Of a stretch of DNA of 64,000 bases, positions 23,785-28,288 are shown piece by piece (positions within the stretch are counted from its first letter, which is position 1; each line of letters starts with the position of its first letter). Origin of the DNA: Pedobacter jeongneungensis (lineage in GTDB: Bacteria > Bacteroidota > Bacteroidia > Sphingobacteriales > Sphingobacteriaceae). The stretch is taken from NCBI RefSeq assembly GCF_000633455.1, contig NZ_AYMG01000008.1:207439-271438 (forward strand), read 5' to 3'. A program made the position numbers and the translations under genes. The notes beneath the pieces are model-generated. The model was not told where the DNA came from and searched no databases. It saw nothing but the letters and a program-made list of their open reading frames with translations.

Positions 23785-24366
23785 TTAAAGTTTCGAAAGC
23801 AGAAGCTGTACCGAAGCCCTTTTTTGATAATTTGGGTCGAAATGTACATACTTGATCTTACCCGATCGATCAATGATATAGGTTGCTGGTACAGGTAGTA
23901 TATGGCGATTATTGCCATTGTTAGCTTCCAAATCGATACCATAACCCTTATATTTGGTAAAAGTGGCCTCATCCATCATAAAATTCACTCCATAAGCTTT
24001 CATAATTTCGTCGTCTTTATCCTGCACAATCGAAAAGCCTGCTTTTGTCTTTTTAATGGTCTTATCAATATTTTCTTTTGTTTCGGGCGTGATGCCGATT
24101 ACATAAGCATCTTTTGCAGTAAGCAGGTTTAAAGAATCCTGAAGTTCTTTGATGTGTTTGTTGCAATACGGACACCACTGCCCGCGGTAAAAAAACAGTA
24201 CAACAAAACGGTGCGTTTTAAGTGCACTTTTCAGGCTCACCGTTTTGCCGTTTTGATCGATCCCGGTAAATATCGGGGCCTTATCTCCTTCTTTTAATCC
24301 TTTTTGAGCTTTTACCTGTAACGAAACAGCAACAATTAAGCTTAGAAATAGTATAATTTTTTTCAT
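23785..24366 (-). CDS. Secreted peroxiredoxin-like thiol protein (AhpC/TSA type)
   Basis: A 193-residue thioredoxin-fold protein with a signal peptide (residues 1-20, ending VKAQ), so it acts in the periplasm. The active site is FFYRGQWCPYCNKHI with Cys65 and Cys68; the RGxWCPYC form marks the peroxiredoxin-like group. It should reduce peroxides or protein disulfides. It is the second gene of a unit led by the Met-rich peptide, 47 bases downstream, and a hairpin in that gap may lower its expression relative to the peptide. The unit has an ECF-type promoter, which ties it to the adjacent sigma factor. Confidence 0.88.
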   Translation of the reverse strand: MKKIILFLSLIVAVSLQVKAQKGLKEGDKAPIFTGIDQNGKTVSLKSALKTHRFVVLFFYRGQWCPYCNKHIKELQDSLNLLTAKDAYVIGITPETKENIDKTIKKTKAGFSIVQDKDDEIMKAYGVNFMMDEATFTKYKGYGIDLEANNGNNRHILPVPATYIIDRSGKIKYVHFDPNYQKRASVQLLLSKL

Positions 24367-24380
24367 ATTAGGTGATTAAA

Positions 24381-24406
24381 TTTAGGGAGGCTTTAACCTC
24401 CCTAAA
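24381..24406 (-). terminator. Strong hairpin between Met-rich peptide and peroxiredoxin genes
   Basis: TTTAGGGAGG and CCTCCCTAAA form a perfect 10-bp stem with a 6-base loop, 8 bases past the peptide stop codon. On the minus strand it is followed by TTTAATCACC, a weak T run. It may act as a partial terminator or a 3' stabiliser, giving more peptide mRNA than peroxiredoxin mRNA. Confidence 0.6.
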
Positions 24407-24413
24407 GCTGTTT

Positions 24414-24677
24414 TTACATTTTACTTTTCGACATTTTATCTTTAGCCATTTTAGATTTCTCCATTTTGGCTTTTTTCATCGAATCGGTTTTCATTTTGTC
24501 CATTTTACTTTTTTCCATTTTATCCATTTTCTTTTTGTCCATTTTTTCTTGTTTCATTTTAGACATTTTTTCCTGAAGCGGACTGTTTGCTGAAGCAAAT
24601 GTTGGTAACGAAAGACTAGCCACAACTAAAGTAGCCATAAACAATTTTCCTGCTGATTTTAAGATTTGATTTTTCAT
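24414..24677 (-). CDS. Periplasmic Met/Lys-rich repeat peptide (MXKDX-like)
   Basis: An 87-residue precursor. Residues 1-30 are a signal peptide ending FASA. The mature 57 residues contain 12 Met and 21 Lys, no Cys and no aromatic residue, in a 3-5 residue repeat with Met closing each unit (EKM, DKKKM, EKSKM, KKAKM, AKDKM, SKSKM). The pattern resembles proteins named pentapeptide MXKDX repeat, including, from memory, the MrpX peptide that quenches hypochlorite in Azospira by methionine oxidation. Metal binding is an alternative. It has its own ECF-type promoter (24730-24701) and is followed by a peroxiredoxin-like gene. Confidence 0.8.
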   Translation of the reverse strand: MKNQILKSAGKLFMATLVVASLSLPTFASANSPLQEKMSKMKQEKMDKKKMDKMEKSKMDKMKTDSMKKAKMEKSKMAKDKMSKSKM

Positions 24678-24700
24678 GTTGTTTTGTGTTTTATTTAGTC

Positions 24701-24730
24701 CTTAGTCGAAGCAAAAATTAAAACCTTACA
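24701..24730 (-). promoter_or_regulatory. ECF-type promoter P3, before the Met-rich peptide
   Basis: Minus strand: TGTAAGGT (24730-24723), 14 bases, CGACTAAG (24708-24701). It matches P1 and P2 in both boxes and in spacing, and the expected start is about 17 bases before the ATG at 24677. Confidence 0.78.
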
Positions 24731-24737
24731 ATTAAAA

Positions 24738-26524: not shown

Positions 26525-26561
26525 TAAGCCTTTGCGTTTATCAGTTGTAAACCGCCCCACC

Positions 26562-27278
26562 ATGAAAGTAATCAAAGAAAAACATTCGCTTTTAATGCGG
26601 TGGACACACTGGGTAAATTTCCCTGTACTTGCCATTATGATCTGGAGCGGATTATTCATTTATTGGGCCAACGATGCTTATGGCATTTCCATTTTCGGAT
26701 TTACGCTCATCAAATTTTTCCCCGAATGGTTTTATGATTATTTCCATATTCCACAGCGTTTGGCCGAAGGGATGGCCTTTCATTTTCTGTTTATGTGGTT
26801 CTTTTTCATCAACGGACTGCTCTATGTTGTTTATACCGTTTTTTCGGGCGCATGGCGTGAACTTTTGCCTAATAAAAACTCGTTTAAAGAAGCCTGGCTG
26901 GTGTTGCTGCACGATCTTCATATCCGAAAAACGGTTCCCCCGCAAAAGAAATATAATGCGGCACAGCGGATAGCCTATAGTGCGATCATTTTTATGGGCT
27001 TAGGCTCAGTGATTACAGGATTAGCCATTTACAAGCCCGTTCAATTCTACTGGATCTGCTGGTTATGTGGTGGTTATCATTTTGCACGAATCCTCCATTT
27101 CGCGTTAACGATAGGTTATGTATTTTTCTTTCTGATCCACATTGTCCAGGTTGCGCTGGCCGGCTGGAATAATTTTAGGGCGGTAATTGCCGGATTCGAA
27201 GTGATAGAAGATCAGGCTCAGCCGAAAGTTCAGGAATTAACGATTGAAACTGAAGATAAAGATGAAAACAAATCATAA
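26562..27278 (+). CDS. Membrane cytochrome b (FdnI/HyaC-like)
   Basis: A 238-residue integral membrane protein with four main helices and His residues suitable for two b hemes: RWTHWVNFPVLAIM (helix 1), GMAFHFLFMWFFF (helix 2), GYHFARILHFALTIGYV and FLIHIVQVALAGW (helices 3-4). It belongs to the cytochrome b/b6-domain group that passes electrons between quinol and a periplasmic partner. Its last 17 bases overlap the molybdoenzyme gene, so the two are a pair; it probably feeds electrons to or from that enzyme. ATG 26562 was chosen over an upstream TTG. Confidence 0.88.
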   Translation: MKVIKEKHSLLMRWTHWVNFPVLAIMIWSGLFIYWANDAYGISIFGFTLIKFFPEWFYDYFHIPQRLAEGMAFHFLFMWFFFINGLLYVVYTVFSGAWRELLPNKNSFKEAWLVLLHDLHIRKTVPPQKKYNAAQRIAYSAIIFMGLGSVITGLAIYKPVQFYWICWLCGGYHFARILHFALTIGYVFFFLIHIVQVALAGWNNFRAVIAGFEVIEDQAQPKVQELTIETEDKDENKS

Positions 27279-28053
27279 AAAAACGGTTAAAATCCCTTTA
27301 ACCGTTGATCAAAAAATCAAGAGGCGTACTTTTATTTCATTCGGTACTTTTTTAGCACTTGGAAGCGGTGCATTTGTAGGCTGGAAATGGCTTTTAAATG
27401 CACCTGAAGAAACTGCGGGTATTACTGCAGGCGCGAGAGCCCCTTTACGCAGGGCGTTAAATAAAACAGAACTCTTTTTCCGTAATTTTTTCAGCAATAA
27501 ACACCTGGTTAAAACCTATCCAAAAGAGGAAGCCGCAAAAATACCAAGGATAAACAGTTTGATCGGTATCGAAGATGATGAAGACTTCGACATTGCCACA
27601 TGGAAACTTCAGGTTAAACTTAACAACCAGAAAAACAGGTACATTACCATAGAAGAGATAAAAGCCTTACCCAAAACAGAAATTGTGTACGATTTTAAGT
27701 GTGTGGAAGGTTGGGACGAGATCCAACATTGGGCTGGCGTAAAATTGAGTGATTTTCTAACACATTTTCAACTCGAAAACGAAGCAGAAAAACAATATAT
27801 GGGTTTAGAAACCCCAAATGGCGCCTATTATGTGGGTTTAGAAAGAGAAAGCATCCTCCATCCCCAAACGCTCTTAGCTTATGAAATGAACGGTAAAGCC
27901 ATCAGTACTGAACATGGCGCACCTTTAAGGTTGATTATACCTGTAAAATATGGCATCAAAAACTTAAAACGGATCGGAATGATGTCTTTTAGCAATAGCA
28001 GGCCAAAAGATTATTGGGCCGAGCAGGGTTATGATTATTATTCGGGTTTATAG
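27262..28053 (+). CDS. Tat-exported sulfite-oxidase-family molybdoenzyme (MsrP/YedY-like)
   Basis: A 263-residue protein. The N-terminus has a twin-arginine signal (KRRTFISFG followed by a hydrophobic stretch, residues about 22-45). The SUOX fold domain has the molybdenum ligand Cys147 in YDFKCVEGWDEIQHW, then GVKLSDFL, YYVGLERESILHPQTLLAYE, and KYGIKNLKRIGMM. No heme or Ig-like extra domain is present, as in MsrP-type reductases. The partner is the cytochrome b with a 17-base gene overlap. A convergent tatA gene and the downstream cofactor operon fit its needs. The reaction (methionine sulfoxide reduction or another) is inferred. Confidence 0.88.
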   Translation: MKTNHKKTVKIPLTVDQKIKRRTFISFGTFLALGSGAFVGWKWLLNAPEETAGITAGARAPLRRALNKTELFFRNFFSNKHLVKTYPKEEAAKIPRINSLIGIEDDEDFDIATWKLQVKLNNQKNRYITIEEIKALPKTEIVYDFKCVEGWDEIQHWAGVKLSDFLTHFQLENEAEKQYMGLETPNGAYYVGLERESILHPQTLLAYEMNGKAISTEHGAPLRLIIPVKYGIKNLKRIGMMSFSNSRPKDYWAEQGYDYYSGL

Positions 28054-28055
28054 CT

Positions 28056-28082
28056 GATCTGGAGATAAATAACCTCCAGATC
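28056..28082. terminator. Hairpin between convergent molybdoenzyme and tatA genes
   Basis: GATCTGGAG and CTCCAGATC form a 9-bp perfect stem around a 9-base loop in the 52-base gap between the two stop codons. There is no T run on either strand, so termination efficiency is uncertain. Confidence 0.55.
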
Positions 28083-28105
28083 AAACCATCGGTGCGATTG
28101 AATTA

Positions 28106-28288
28106 TTAAGCCTGTTTCGGAACTTCCGGTTTCTCTTCTTCCTGCCCCGCTTTAAATTCTTTTATTCCCTTGCCAAGACCTTTCATTAATTCAGGGATTT
28201 TTTTACCGCCGAACAATAATAAAACAGCAACTCCAACAAGGATCAGTTCAGGCCCTCCAAGTAAGGCGGCAATGGTTGTATTTAACAT
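28106..28288 (-). CDS. tatA: TatA-family twin-arginine translocase subunit
   Basis: A 60-residue single-helix protein. The helix is LILVGVAVLLLFGGKKIPEL, followed by an amphipathic helix MKGLGKGIKEFKAG and an acidic tail. The FGxxKIPEL junction is the TatA/E signature. It forms the pore-like assemblies that export folded proteins. It lies tail to tail with the Tat-dependent molybdoenzyme, which suggests functional linkage, but tatC is not in this window. Confidence 0.92.
   Translation of the reverse strand: MLNTTIAALLGGPELILVGVAVLLLFGGKKIPELMKGLGKGIKEFKAGQEEEKPEVPKQA

What the first reader, a model, noticed from the sequence alone, without database searches (positions are those of the whole stretch)
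23785..28288. Candidate methionine-based oxidant-scavenging regulon, possibly a new Bacteroidota version of a hypochlorite defence system
The gene set is ECF sigma, zinc anti-sigma, periplasmic Met/Lys-rich peptide, secreted peroxiredoxin-like protein, DUF1223 thiol protein, membrane cytochrome b, Tat-exported SUOX-family molybdoenzyme and tatA. Established knowledge (recalled, not searched): in Azospira a sigma factor with a membrane anti-sigma (NrsF) drives a Met-rich peptide (MrpX) and a YedY-type methionine sulfoxide reductase against hypochlorite. Here the sensor is a soluble zinc anti-sigma, and peroxiredoxin and DUF1223 are added. Inference: oxidants oxidise Met in the peptide, and the molybdoenzyme with cytochrome b reduces it back from the quinol pool.
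Basis: partly seen in the sequence, partly recalled or inferred. Interest (0 to 1): 0.85.

Follow-up and report, generated by a model that had tools for sequence, protein, structure and literature searches.

The report
Rechargeable methionine shield against bleach-like oxidants
In a Pedobacter-like bacterium, three neighbouring gene sets share a promoter whose exact form occurs nowhere else in its genome, and they would likely let the cell soak up bleach-like oxidants with a methionine-rich peptide that is predicted to be chemically repaired and reused.

Summary
They form one predicted regulon. The promoter TGTAAGG-N15-CGACTAA occurs exactly three times in the 6.7-Mb genome: before sigma/anti-sigma, before peptide/peroxiredoxin, and before DUF1223/cytochrome b/SUOX enzyme. 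The only one-mismatch site precedes an MsrA with a signal-peptide-like start. In 151 genomes of the order, 135 of 149 exact sites precede sigma, DUF1223/cytb, peptide, peroxiredoxin, msrA or msrB; 33 precede msrA or msrB. The peptide occurs in 39 of 151 genomes, and all 39 also have sigma and the SUOX enzyme. The regulator has the cysteine/histidine set and a near-identical promoter to Neisseria sigmaE-MseR. The effectors resemble Azospira MrpX-YedYZ and Brucella BcrXQP. But the membrane partner is cytochrome b561, not MsrQ, and the peptide and enzyme fall below the curated family cut-offs. So it works like those systems without being a tested member: a new variant. Hypochlorite specificity and enzyme activity are untested. 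tatA carries no promoter motif and is not shown to belong.

The parts
23785..24366 (-). AhpC/TSA-family peroxiredoxin-like protein with CPYC and a signal-peptide-like N-terminus; second gene of the peptide unit
   Evidence: Pfam AhpC-TSA E 4e-30; 47 bp behind the peptide gene and under its motif; in five relatives without the peptide at this place the motif directly precedes prx (L039, L045, L046, L047, L051)
24414..24677 (-). Met/Lys-rich peptide with a signal-peptide-like start, proposed sacrificial oxidant sink
   Evidence: 12 Met and 21 Lys in 57 presumed mature residues, Met spacing 3 or 5, no Cys or His in the mature window copy; TIGR02953 MXKDX 29.2 bits, below cut-off 41
24702..24730 (-). 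ECF promoter motif TGTAAGG-N15-CGACTAA before peptide-prx
24738..25004 (-). 88-aa anti-sigma of ZAS type, no membrane segment seen
   Evidence: C12, H38, C42, C45 invariant in all 24 aligned homologues; NF052368 antisigmaE 40.1 bits (cut-off 50), zf-HC2 19.4 bits (cut-off 22.2)
25006..25605 (-). ECF sigma factor, TIGR02943-like
   Evidence: Pfam Sigma70_r2 E 2e-15; TIGR02943 143.8 bits, cut-off 162.2; matches at E <= 1e-20 in 65 of 151 order genomes
25645..25673 (-). ECF promoter motif before sigma/anti-sigma (autoregulation predicted)
25690..25718 (+). ECF promoter motif before DUF1223-cytb-SUOX
25730..26524 (+). DUF1223 thioredoxin-fold protein with CSSC, secreted-like
   Evidence: Pfam DUF1223 E 1.5e-58; DUF1223 assigned to the thioredoxin-like clan in PMC3091736 (passages)
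26562..27278 (+). Cytochrome b561 family (Ni_hydr_CYTB) membrane protein, predicted electron donor
   Evidence: Pfam PF01292 E 3e-15; H8, H16, H74, H120, H173, H179 and H193 invariant in 14 homologues; overlaps the SUOX gene by 17 bp
27262..28053 (+). SUOX-fold molybdoenzyme with RR motif and FKCVEGW, predicted methionine sulfoxide reductase
28106..28288 (-). tatA; a neighbour, not shown to belong to the regulon
   Evidence: TIGR01411 above cut-off; no motif upstream

Best explanation
This is a small regulon, likely an oxidant response, in which a presumed redox-sensing zinc anti-sigma factor would release its ECF sigma factor, which is predicted to switch on a methionine-rich peptide meant to be oxidised in place of cell proteins, together with enzymes that would likely reduce the methionine sulfoxide back. 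Shown: one promoter motif stands before the sigma/anti-sigma, peptide/peroxiredoxin and DUF1223/cytochrome b/SUOX units, and across relatives before msrA and msrB. Shown: in 151 genomes the peptide was found only where the sigma factor and the SUOX enzyme are found too. Inferred: oxidation of the anti-sigma Cys/His site frees sigma. Inferred: the exported peptide absorbs HOCl or chloramine-type oxidants at its Met residues. Inferred: quinol electrons pass through cytochrome b561 to the Tat-exported molybdoenzyme, which reduces methionine sulfoxide, alongside exported MsrA and, in relatives, MsrB. Inferred: DUF1223 and the peroxiredoxin handle thiol or peroxide side reactions.
For: The exact motif occurs 3 times in the genome, all here, against 1 control match; the only one-mismatch site is 18 nt upstream of an MsrA (PF01625 E 1.4e-66). 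In the order, 56 of 65 sigma-positive genomes carry the exact motif against 4 of 86 sigma-negative ones; 149 motif sites against 15 reversed-pattern control sites in 151 genomes (my count of the table). Of the 149, 135 precede sigma (42), DUF1223 (22), cytb (1), prx (19), msrA (19), peptide (18) or msrB (14). Peptide versus SUOX: 39 both, 0 peptide only, 19 SUOX only, 93 neither; all 39 peptide genomes also have sigma. In two Dyadobacter loci msrB is next behind SUOX on the same strand (L223, L249), and in L083 an msrB starts 23-57 bp behind the anti-sigma. The anti-sigma has C12-x25-H38-x3-C42-x2-C45, the same spacing as MseR C4/H30/C34/C37 and RsrA C11/H37/C41/C44. The -35 elements GTAAGGATT (DUF1223) and GTAAGGTTT (peptide) and the 12-nt spacer fit the Neisseria sigmaE consensus GTMAGBWTT, 12-13 nt, CGTCTAAH, with one base different in the -10. 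SUOX is nearest to E. coli YedY/MsrP by sequence.
Against: No expression, enzyme or phenotype data. The peptide (29.2 of 41 bits) and SUOX (89.6 of 207 bits) miss the curated MXKDX and MsrP cut-offs. YedY leads sulfite oxidases by only about 1 Z unit (16.6 against 15.7). 12 of 58 SUOX genomes have neither sigma nor peptide, and 7 of 46 sigma+SUOX genomes have no detected peptide, so the enzyme can exist without them. Phylogenetic control: only 4 supported independent SUOX contrasts, on average 3.7 going the same way, 0 the opposite way, p 0.125. In Neisseria, oxidants did not change sigmaE expression (PMC2893595), and a Haemophilus rpoE2 mutant was not HOCl-sensitive in vitro (PMC7907618). The own-genome msrA site has its mismatch in the -10 element, and sites with up to two mismatches are no commoner than the control (26 against 65). 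14 of 149 sites precede other genes.
Confidence: 0.72

Rival explanations
1. The regulon is a methionine-oxidation response, but the SUOX/b561 enzyme acts on another substrate (a small sulfoxide, an N-oxide or sulfite), and the peptide is recycled only by exported MsrA and MsrB.
For: SUOX scores far below the MsrP cut-off; it exists without sigma and peptide in 12 of 58 genomes; msrA/msrB share the promoter.
Against: The peptide was not found without SUOX in 151 genomes, and in 19 of the 26 sigma-positive genomes without a peptide SUOX is missing too; Dyadobacter has cytb-SUOX-msrB side by side; sequence and fold are closest to YedY/MsrP.
Confidence: 0.2
2. The peptide is a metal (copper) buffer in the periplasm and the regulon answers metal stress that oxidises methionine.
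For: Met-rich and, in 18 of 38 homologues, His-containing peptides; in two genomes of another family the same motif precedes a Cys-rich peptide, in one of them shown to lie next to a BufB-type MNIO enzyme, a copper-linked kind of system (recalled).
Against: The mature window peptide has neither His nor Cys; no copper transporter was seen by eye in the first 50 residues printed for the 14 'other' sites; methionine sulfoxide reductases are the main extra members.
Confidence: 0.12
3. A general envelope thiol or peroxide stress regulon in which the peptide is an incidental or structural lysine-rich protein.
For: Peroxiredoxin, DUF1223 thioredoxin-fold protein and a redox-type anti-sigma are included; in a relative without peptide and SUOX (G051) the motif still precedes sigma, prx and msrA (L039, L127).
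Against: Met periodicity (3 or 5) and co-occurrence with SUOX.
Confidence: 0.08

Closest known systems
Azospira SigF/NrsF-MrpX-YedYZ hypochlorite scavenging (Melnyk 2015, recalled, not held; described in PMC4623255, passages)
   Same: ECF sigma, Met-rich peptide and SUOX-family enzyme with a membrane cytochrome; exported MsrA/MsrB in some islands
   Different: Here a small ZAS-type anti-sigma, a cytochrome b561 instead of YedZ/MsrQ, plus DUF1223 and peroxiredoxin; peptide and enzyme below the family cut-offs
Brucella BcrS/AbcS-BcrXQP (PMC8315932, abstract and passages)
   [quoted passage not shown] HOCl-induced there
   Different: ECF16 sigma with a six-helix membrane anti-sigma and MsrQP; the two adjacent promoters listed there read GTAAC and CGAA-type elements
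Neisseria sigmaE-MseR (PMC2893595, abstract and passages)
   Same: ZAS anti-sigma with identical Cys/His spacing, near-identical promoter, small autoregulated regulon with MsrA/MsrB
   Different: No Met-rich peptide or SUOX unit described in the passages read; oxidants did not change expression there
Haemophilus RpoE2-HrsE (PMC7907618, abstract and passages)
   Same: 67-aa cytoplasmic anti-sigma related to the Neisseria one; rpoE2 raised by HOCl and H2O2; controls periplasmic MsrAB and a second periplasmic MetSO reductase, MtsZ
   Different: MtsZ is a molybdoenzyme of another family (recalled); no Met-rich peptide reported in the passages read
Bufferin operons (BufA/BufB)
   Same: The same promoter motif precedes a Cys-rich peptide in two distant genomes (L276, L277), with a BufB enzyme identified beside it in L276
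   Different: No MNIO enzyme among the nine window proteins scanned and no Cys in the mature peptide

Membership tests
MrpX-YedYZ / BcrXQP methionine-cycling system | Met-rich MXKDX exported peptide | tested here: inconclusive
   Composition and 5-residue period fit, but TIGR02953 29.2 bits is below cut-off 41; 8 of 21 homologues match at E <= 1e-3
MrpX-YedYZ / BcrXQP methionine-cycling system | MsrP (YedY) catalytic subunit | tested here: not met
   NF003767 89.6 bits against cut-off 207; nearest solved relative is nevertheless YedY
MrpX-YedYZ / BcrXQP methionine-cycling system | MsrQ (YedZ) membrane partner | tested here: not met
   Partner is PF01292 cytochrome b561
MrpX-YedYZ / BcrXQP methionine-cycling system | SigF/ECF16 sigma with membrane NrsF-type anti-sigma | tested here: not met
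   Anti-sigma is an 88-aa protein with ZAS ligands; sigma is TIGR02943-like
MrpX-YedYZ / BcrXQP methionine-cycling system | Induced by and protective against hypochlorite | not testable with these tools
   needs wet-lab work
sigmaE-MseR / RpoE2-HrsE redox sigma regulons | ZAS motif H-x3-C-x2-C with an upstream Cys | tested here: met
   C12, H38, C42 and C45 invariant in 24 of 24
sigmaE-MseR / RpoE2-HrsE redox sigma regulons | Promoter GTMAGBWTT, 12-13 nt, CGTCTAAH | tested here: inconclusive
   -35 fits at DUF1223 (GTAAGGATT) and peptide (GTAAGGTTT), last base departs at sigma (GTAAGGATG); spacer 12 nt in all three; -10 is CGACTAA, one base off, in all three
sigmaE-MseR / RpoE2-HrsE redox sigma regulons | Controls exported MsrA/MsrB | tested here: inconclusive
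   At promoter level it fits: 33 of 149 exact sites precede msrA or msrB, own genome with one mismatch; control itself and export are inferred
sigmaE-MseR / RpoE2-HrsE redox sigma regulons | Sigma orthologous to NMB2144 / HiRpoE2 | not tested
   Those sequences were not fetched
TIGR02943 sigma family | Score over curated cut-off 162.2 | tested here: not met
   143.8 bits; no hit over the cut-off in the own genome
Sulfite dehydrogenase (SorA/SorT) | Curated model score | tested here: not met
   47.3 of 600 and 43.8 of 570 bits
Bufferin system | Cys-rich precursor with MNIO maturase | tested here: not met
   No Cys in the mature window peptide; no MNIO among the nine proteins scanned

The most novel reading that the evidence does not exclude
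Bacteroidota built their own rechargeable methionine shield. A redox sigma switch of the Neisseria/Haemophilus kind has captured a sacrificial Met-peptide, and a cytochrome b561-SUOX enzyme pair, independent of MsrP-MsrQ, recharges that peptide from the quinol pool, with DUF1223 as a dedicated thioredoxin-like helper. The same promoter class elsewhere commands Cys-rich bufferins, so one sensor type would run interchangeable peptide sinks.
Probability: 0.35. Interest if true: 0.8.

Novelty: new variant of a known kind. Interest (0 to 1): 0.64.

Why it matters
Met-rich-peptide oxidant defence, in the papers that the searches here returned, is proteobacterial. This would place it in a second phylum with a different sensor, a different electron donor and a promoter sharp enough to predict the regulon site by site. 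It gives a testable role to DUF1223 and to a b561-linked branch of the SUOX family without an assigned substrate (how large that branch is was not counted). It also suggests that sensor and sink are separable modules.

Tried and rejected
tatA as a regulon member: no motif upstream; kept only as a neighbour. Simple gene hitch-hiking: rejected because the motif also marks separated units. In G127 and G015 the peptide, DUF1223-cytb-SUOX and msrB-msrA lie on another contig than sigma, and each unit carries the motif (L157, L162). In L157 one search found no ORF for the peptide's motif because an in-frame ATG lies further upstream; one search places the peptide about 23 bp behind it and one search counts it.

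Searching the own genome with up to two mismatches gave no enrichment over its control and was not used beyond the single one-mismatch site. TIGR02943 as a family name for sigma: below cut-off. A phylum-wide motif scan: 13 of 395 genomes, 7 of them in the same family. Of the other six, two precede the bufferin-like peptide, one (L278) has a secreted thioredoxin-like Omp28-type protein (by eye) 182 bp downstream, and three have nothing recognisable.

The tree test used 57 sigma proteins (window plus one per fetched genome, second copies left out); it is directionally consistent but too small to be significant. The count in named loci (40 peptide and SUOX, 10 SUOX only, 5 peptide only, 25 neither, n 80) includes contigs cut short. 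Seven sigma+SUOX genomes lack a detected peptide; in five of these seven, and in L071 (whose genome has the peptide elsewhere), I looked behind the anti-sigma and saw no Met-rich ORF of 30 or more residues; the other two were not looked at that way. Plasmid search with sigma: 68 records, all under 60% identity, the best 39.7%; of these I opened two neighbourhoods (L285, L286), and saw no peptide/SUOX unit.

Literature: ten searches. Searches (Bacteroidetes/MsrP/methionine-rich/sigma factor; MsrP/cytochrome b561/methionine sulfoxide; Pedobacter/ECF sigma/methionine sulfoxide reductase) returned no paper; this covers only open-licence PMC.
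Full report
Observation. The eight genes exist at the stated coordinates with the stated families. The window lies at G000:C8:207439-271438 of a 6.7-Mb draft genome in 66 contigs. A near-identical relative (G061, sigma 97% identical) has a contig of 6,329,746 bases, the length listed for a protein named Pedobacter roseus, so the organism is very probably a Pedobacter.

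One promoter, three units. Reading the intergenic regions showed TGTAAGG-N15-CGACTAA before the peptide (24730 to 24702, minus), sigma (25673 to 25645, minus) and DUF1223 (25690 to 25718, plus). A looser form with one mismatch allowed finds the same three sites and no other in the 64-kb window, with 0.08 expected. The exact form with a 12-22 nt spacer finds the same three in the whole genome, against one control match. With one mismatch one more site appears: it lies 18 nt before the start of a 199-aa MsrA with a signal-peptide-like start (PF01625 E 1.4e-66). With up to two mismatches hits are not above control (26 against 65).

Conservation of the regulon. Sigma (E <= 1e-20) is in 65 of 151 sampled genomes of the order. 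The exact motif (N14-15) is in 60 of 151, 149 sites in all against 15 of the reversed control pattern (my sums of the table). Together: 56 both, 9 sigma only, 4 motif only, 82 neither. All 149 sites lie in fetched stretches and were classified by the best-matching ORF starting within -60 to +320 bp: sigma 42, DUF1223 22, cytb 1, prx 19, msrA 19, peptide 18, msrB 14, other 14. Two cautions apply: 'prx' includes distant AhpC/TSA members, and some peptide sites are counted as prx because prx follows within the search distance (e.g. G071, G019, G140; compare). MsrA or MsrB is motif-linked in 24 of 60 genomes. MsrB proteins printed mostly start with a lipobox-like stretch and MsrA with signal-peptide-like stretches; export is inferred from these, no predictor was run. 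msrB is also next behind SUOX on the same strand in two Dyadobacter loci and 23-57 bp behind the anti-sigma in L083.

Peptide, enzyme and sigma travel together. A profile of 21 peptides finds the peptide (E <= 1e-4) in 39 of 151 genomes. SUOX orthologues (E <= 1e-70) are in 58 of 151 (cut made). All 39 peptide genomes have both SUOX and sigma; 19 SUOX genomes lack the peptide, 12 of them lacking sigma too. Within the 65 sigma-positive genomes: 39 have peptide and SUOX, 7 SUOX only, 19 neither, 0 peptide only. These are counts of related genomes; on a sigma tree only 4 supported independent contrasts exist, all in the expected direction or unchanged, p 0.125. In 80 named loci of Pedobacter, Mucilaginibacter, Chitinophaga, Dyadobacter, Xanthocytophaga, a Puia MAG and unnamed Bacteroidetes MAGs, 40 have peptide and SUOX near sigma, 10 SUOX only, 5 peptide only, 25 neither.

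Regulator. The anti-sigma keeps C12, H38, C42 and C45 in 24 of 24 homologues. Spacings of 26, 4 and 3 residues are those of Neisseria MseR and Streptomyces RsrA as given in PMC2893595 (passages). The Neisseria sigmaE promoter in that paper (-35 GTMAGBWTT, spacer 12-13, -10 CGTCTAAH) differs from the DUF1223 and peptide promoters here by one base, and from the sigma promoter by two. Haemophilus RpoE2-HrsE is described as related to the Neisseria pair, raised by HOCl and H2O2, and in control of periplasmic MsrAB and of MtsZ, another periplasmic MetSO reductase (PMC7907618, abstract and passages). Against: in Neisseria oxidants did not change expression, and the Haemophilus mutant was not HOCl-sensitive in vitro. 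By family score the sigma is near but below TIGR02943. I did not compare it with the Neisseria or Haemophilus proteins.

How it works. Inferred sequence of events: oxidant reaches the cytosolic ZAS protein, zinc and thiols are lost, sigma fires the three units and msrA. The peptide is exported and offers a dozen methionines to HOCl-like oxidants. Cytochrome b561 would pass quinol electrons to the Tat-exported molybdoenzyme, which, with MsrA (and MsrB in relatives), turns sulfoxide back. Steps that rest on data here: shared promoter motif, gene content, co-occurrence, ligand set. Steps that rest on analogy: redox sensing, oxidant identity, enzyme substrate, electron route.

Known or new. The idea of a methionine-cycling peptide is known from Azospira (Melnyk 2015, recalled; PMC4623255 passages) and Brucella (PMC8315932 abstract and passages). 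Defining parts of those systems, MsrQ and the membrane NrsF-type anti-sigma, were tested and not met, so I do not file it as a member. The regulator features tested fit, or nearly fit, the ZAS redox sigma regulons. The union of the two, in Bacteroidota, was not found in print (open-licence PMC only). Hence: new variant of a known kind.

Noticed in passing
L276:1193-1432(-) and L276:2-787(-); L277: In two genomes of another family of the phylum (G418, G426) the same exact motif lies 68-74 bp before a Lys/Cys-rich bufferin-like peptide; in L276 an MNIO BufB maturase (NF050167 over cut-off) follows. One promoter class may serve both Met- and Cys-type peptide sinks.
   Followed up: partly
L072:6192-7728(+): Motif before a DUF417 protein (best NCBIfam RclC, reactive chlorine resistance, below cut-off) followed by an MsrA-MsrB fusion.
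   Followed up: partly
L147:4136-6481(+), L148: Motif before a FAD disulfide oxidoreductase (PRK06370, RclA and MerA models, all below cut-off) and a ProV-like ABC ATPase in two genomes.
   Followed up: partly
window 28820-32691: xdhC, mobA, moaA and moeA (molybdenum cofactor genes, named by eye from the translations) lie next to the SUOX unit and stay next to sigma even in relatives that lack peptide and SUOX there (e.g. L039, L044, L045).
   Followed up: no
L135:3905-4087 and 8691: Second locus in G061 with a partial SUOX match, a Met/Asp-rich lipoprotein-like peptide and a motif before a DM13-like lipoprotein (by eye).
   Followed up: no
L065:7327-7833(-), L063: Two loci have, behind the peptide, a 165-169-aa secreted-looking protein that resembles (by eye) a SUOX/PruR-type fold without the Mo cysteine; no Pfam hit for the L065 copy.
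   Followed up: no
window 24414-24677 versus L037:8079-8357: The peptide of the nearest relative has one extra 5-residue unit, so the repeat number varies between close strains.
   Followed up: no
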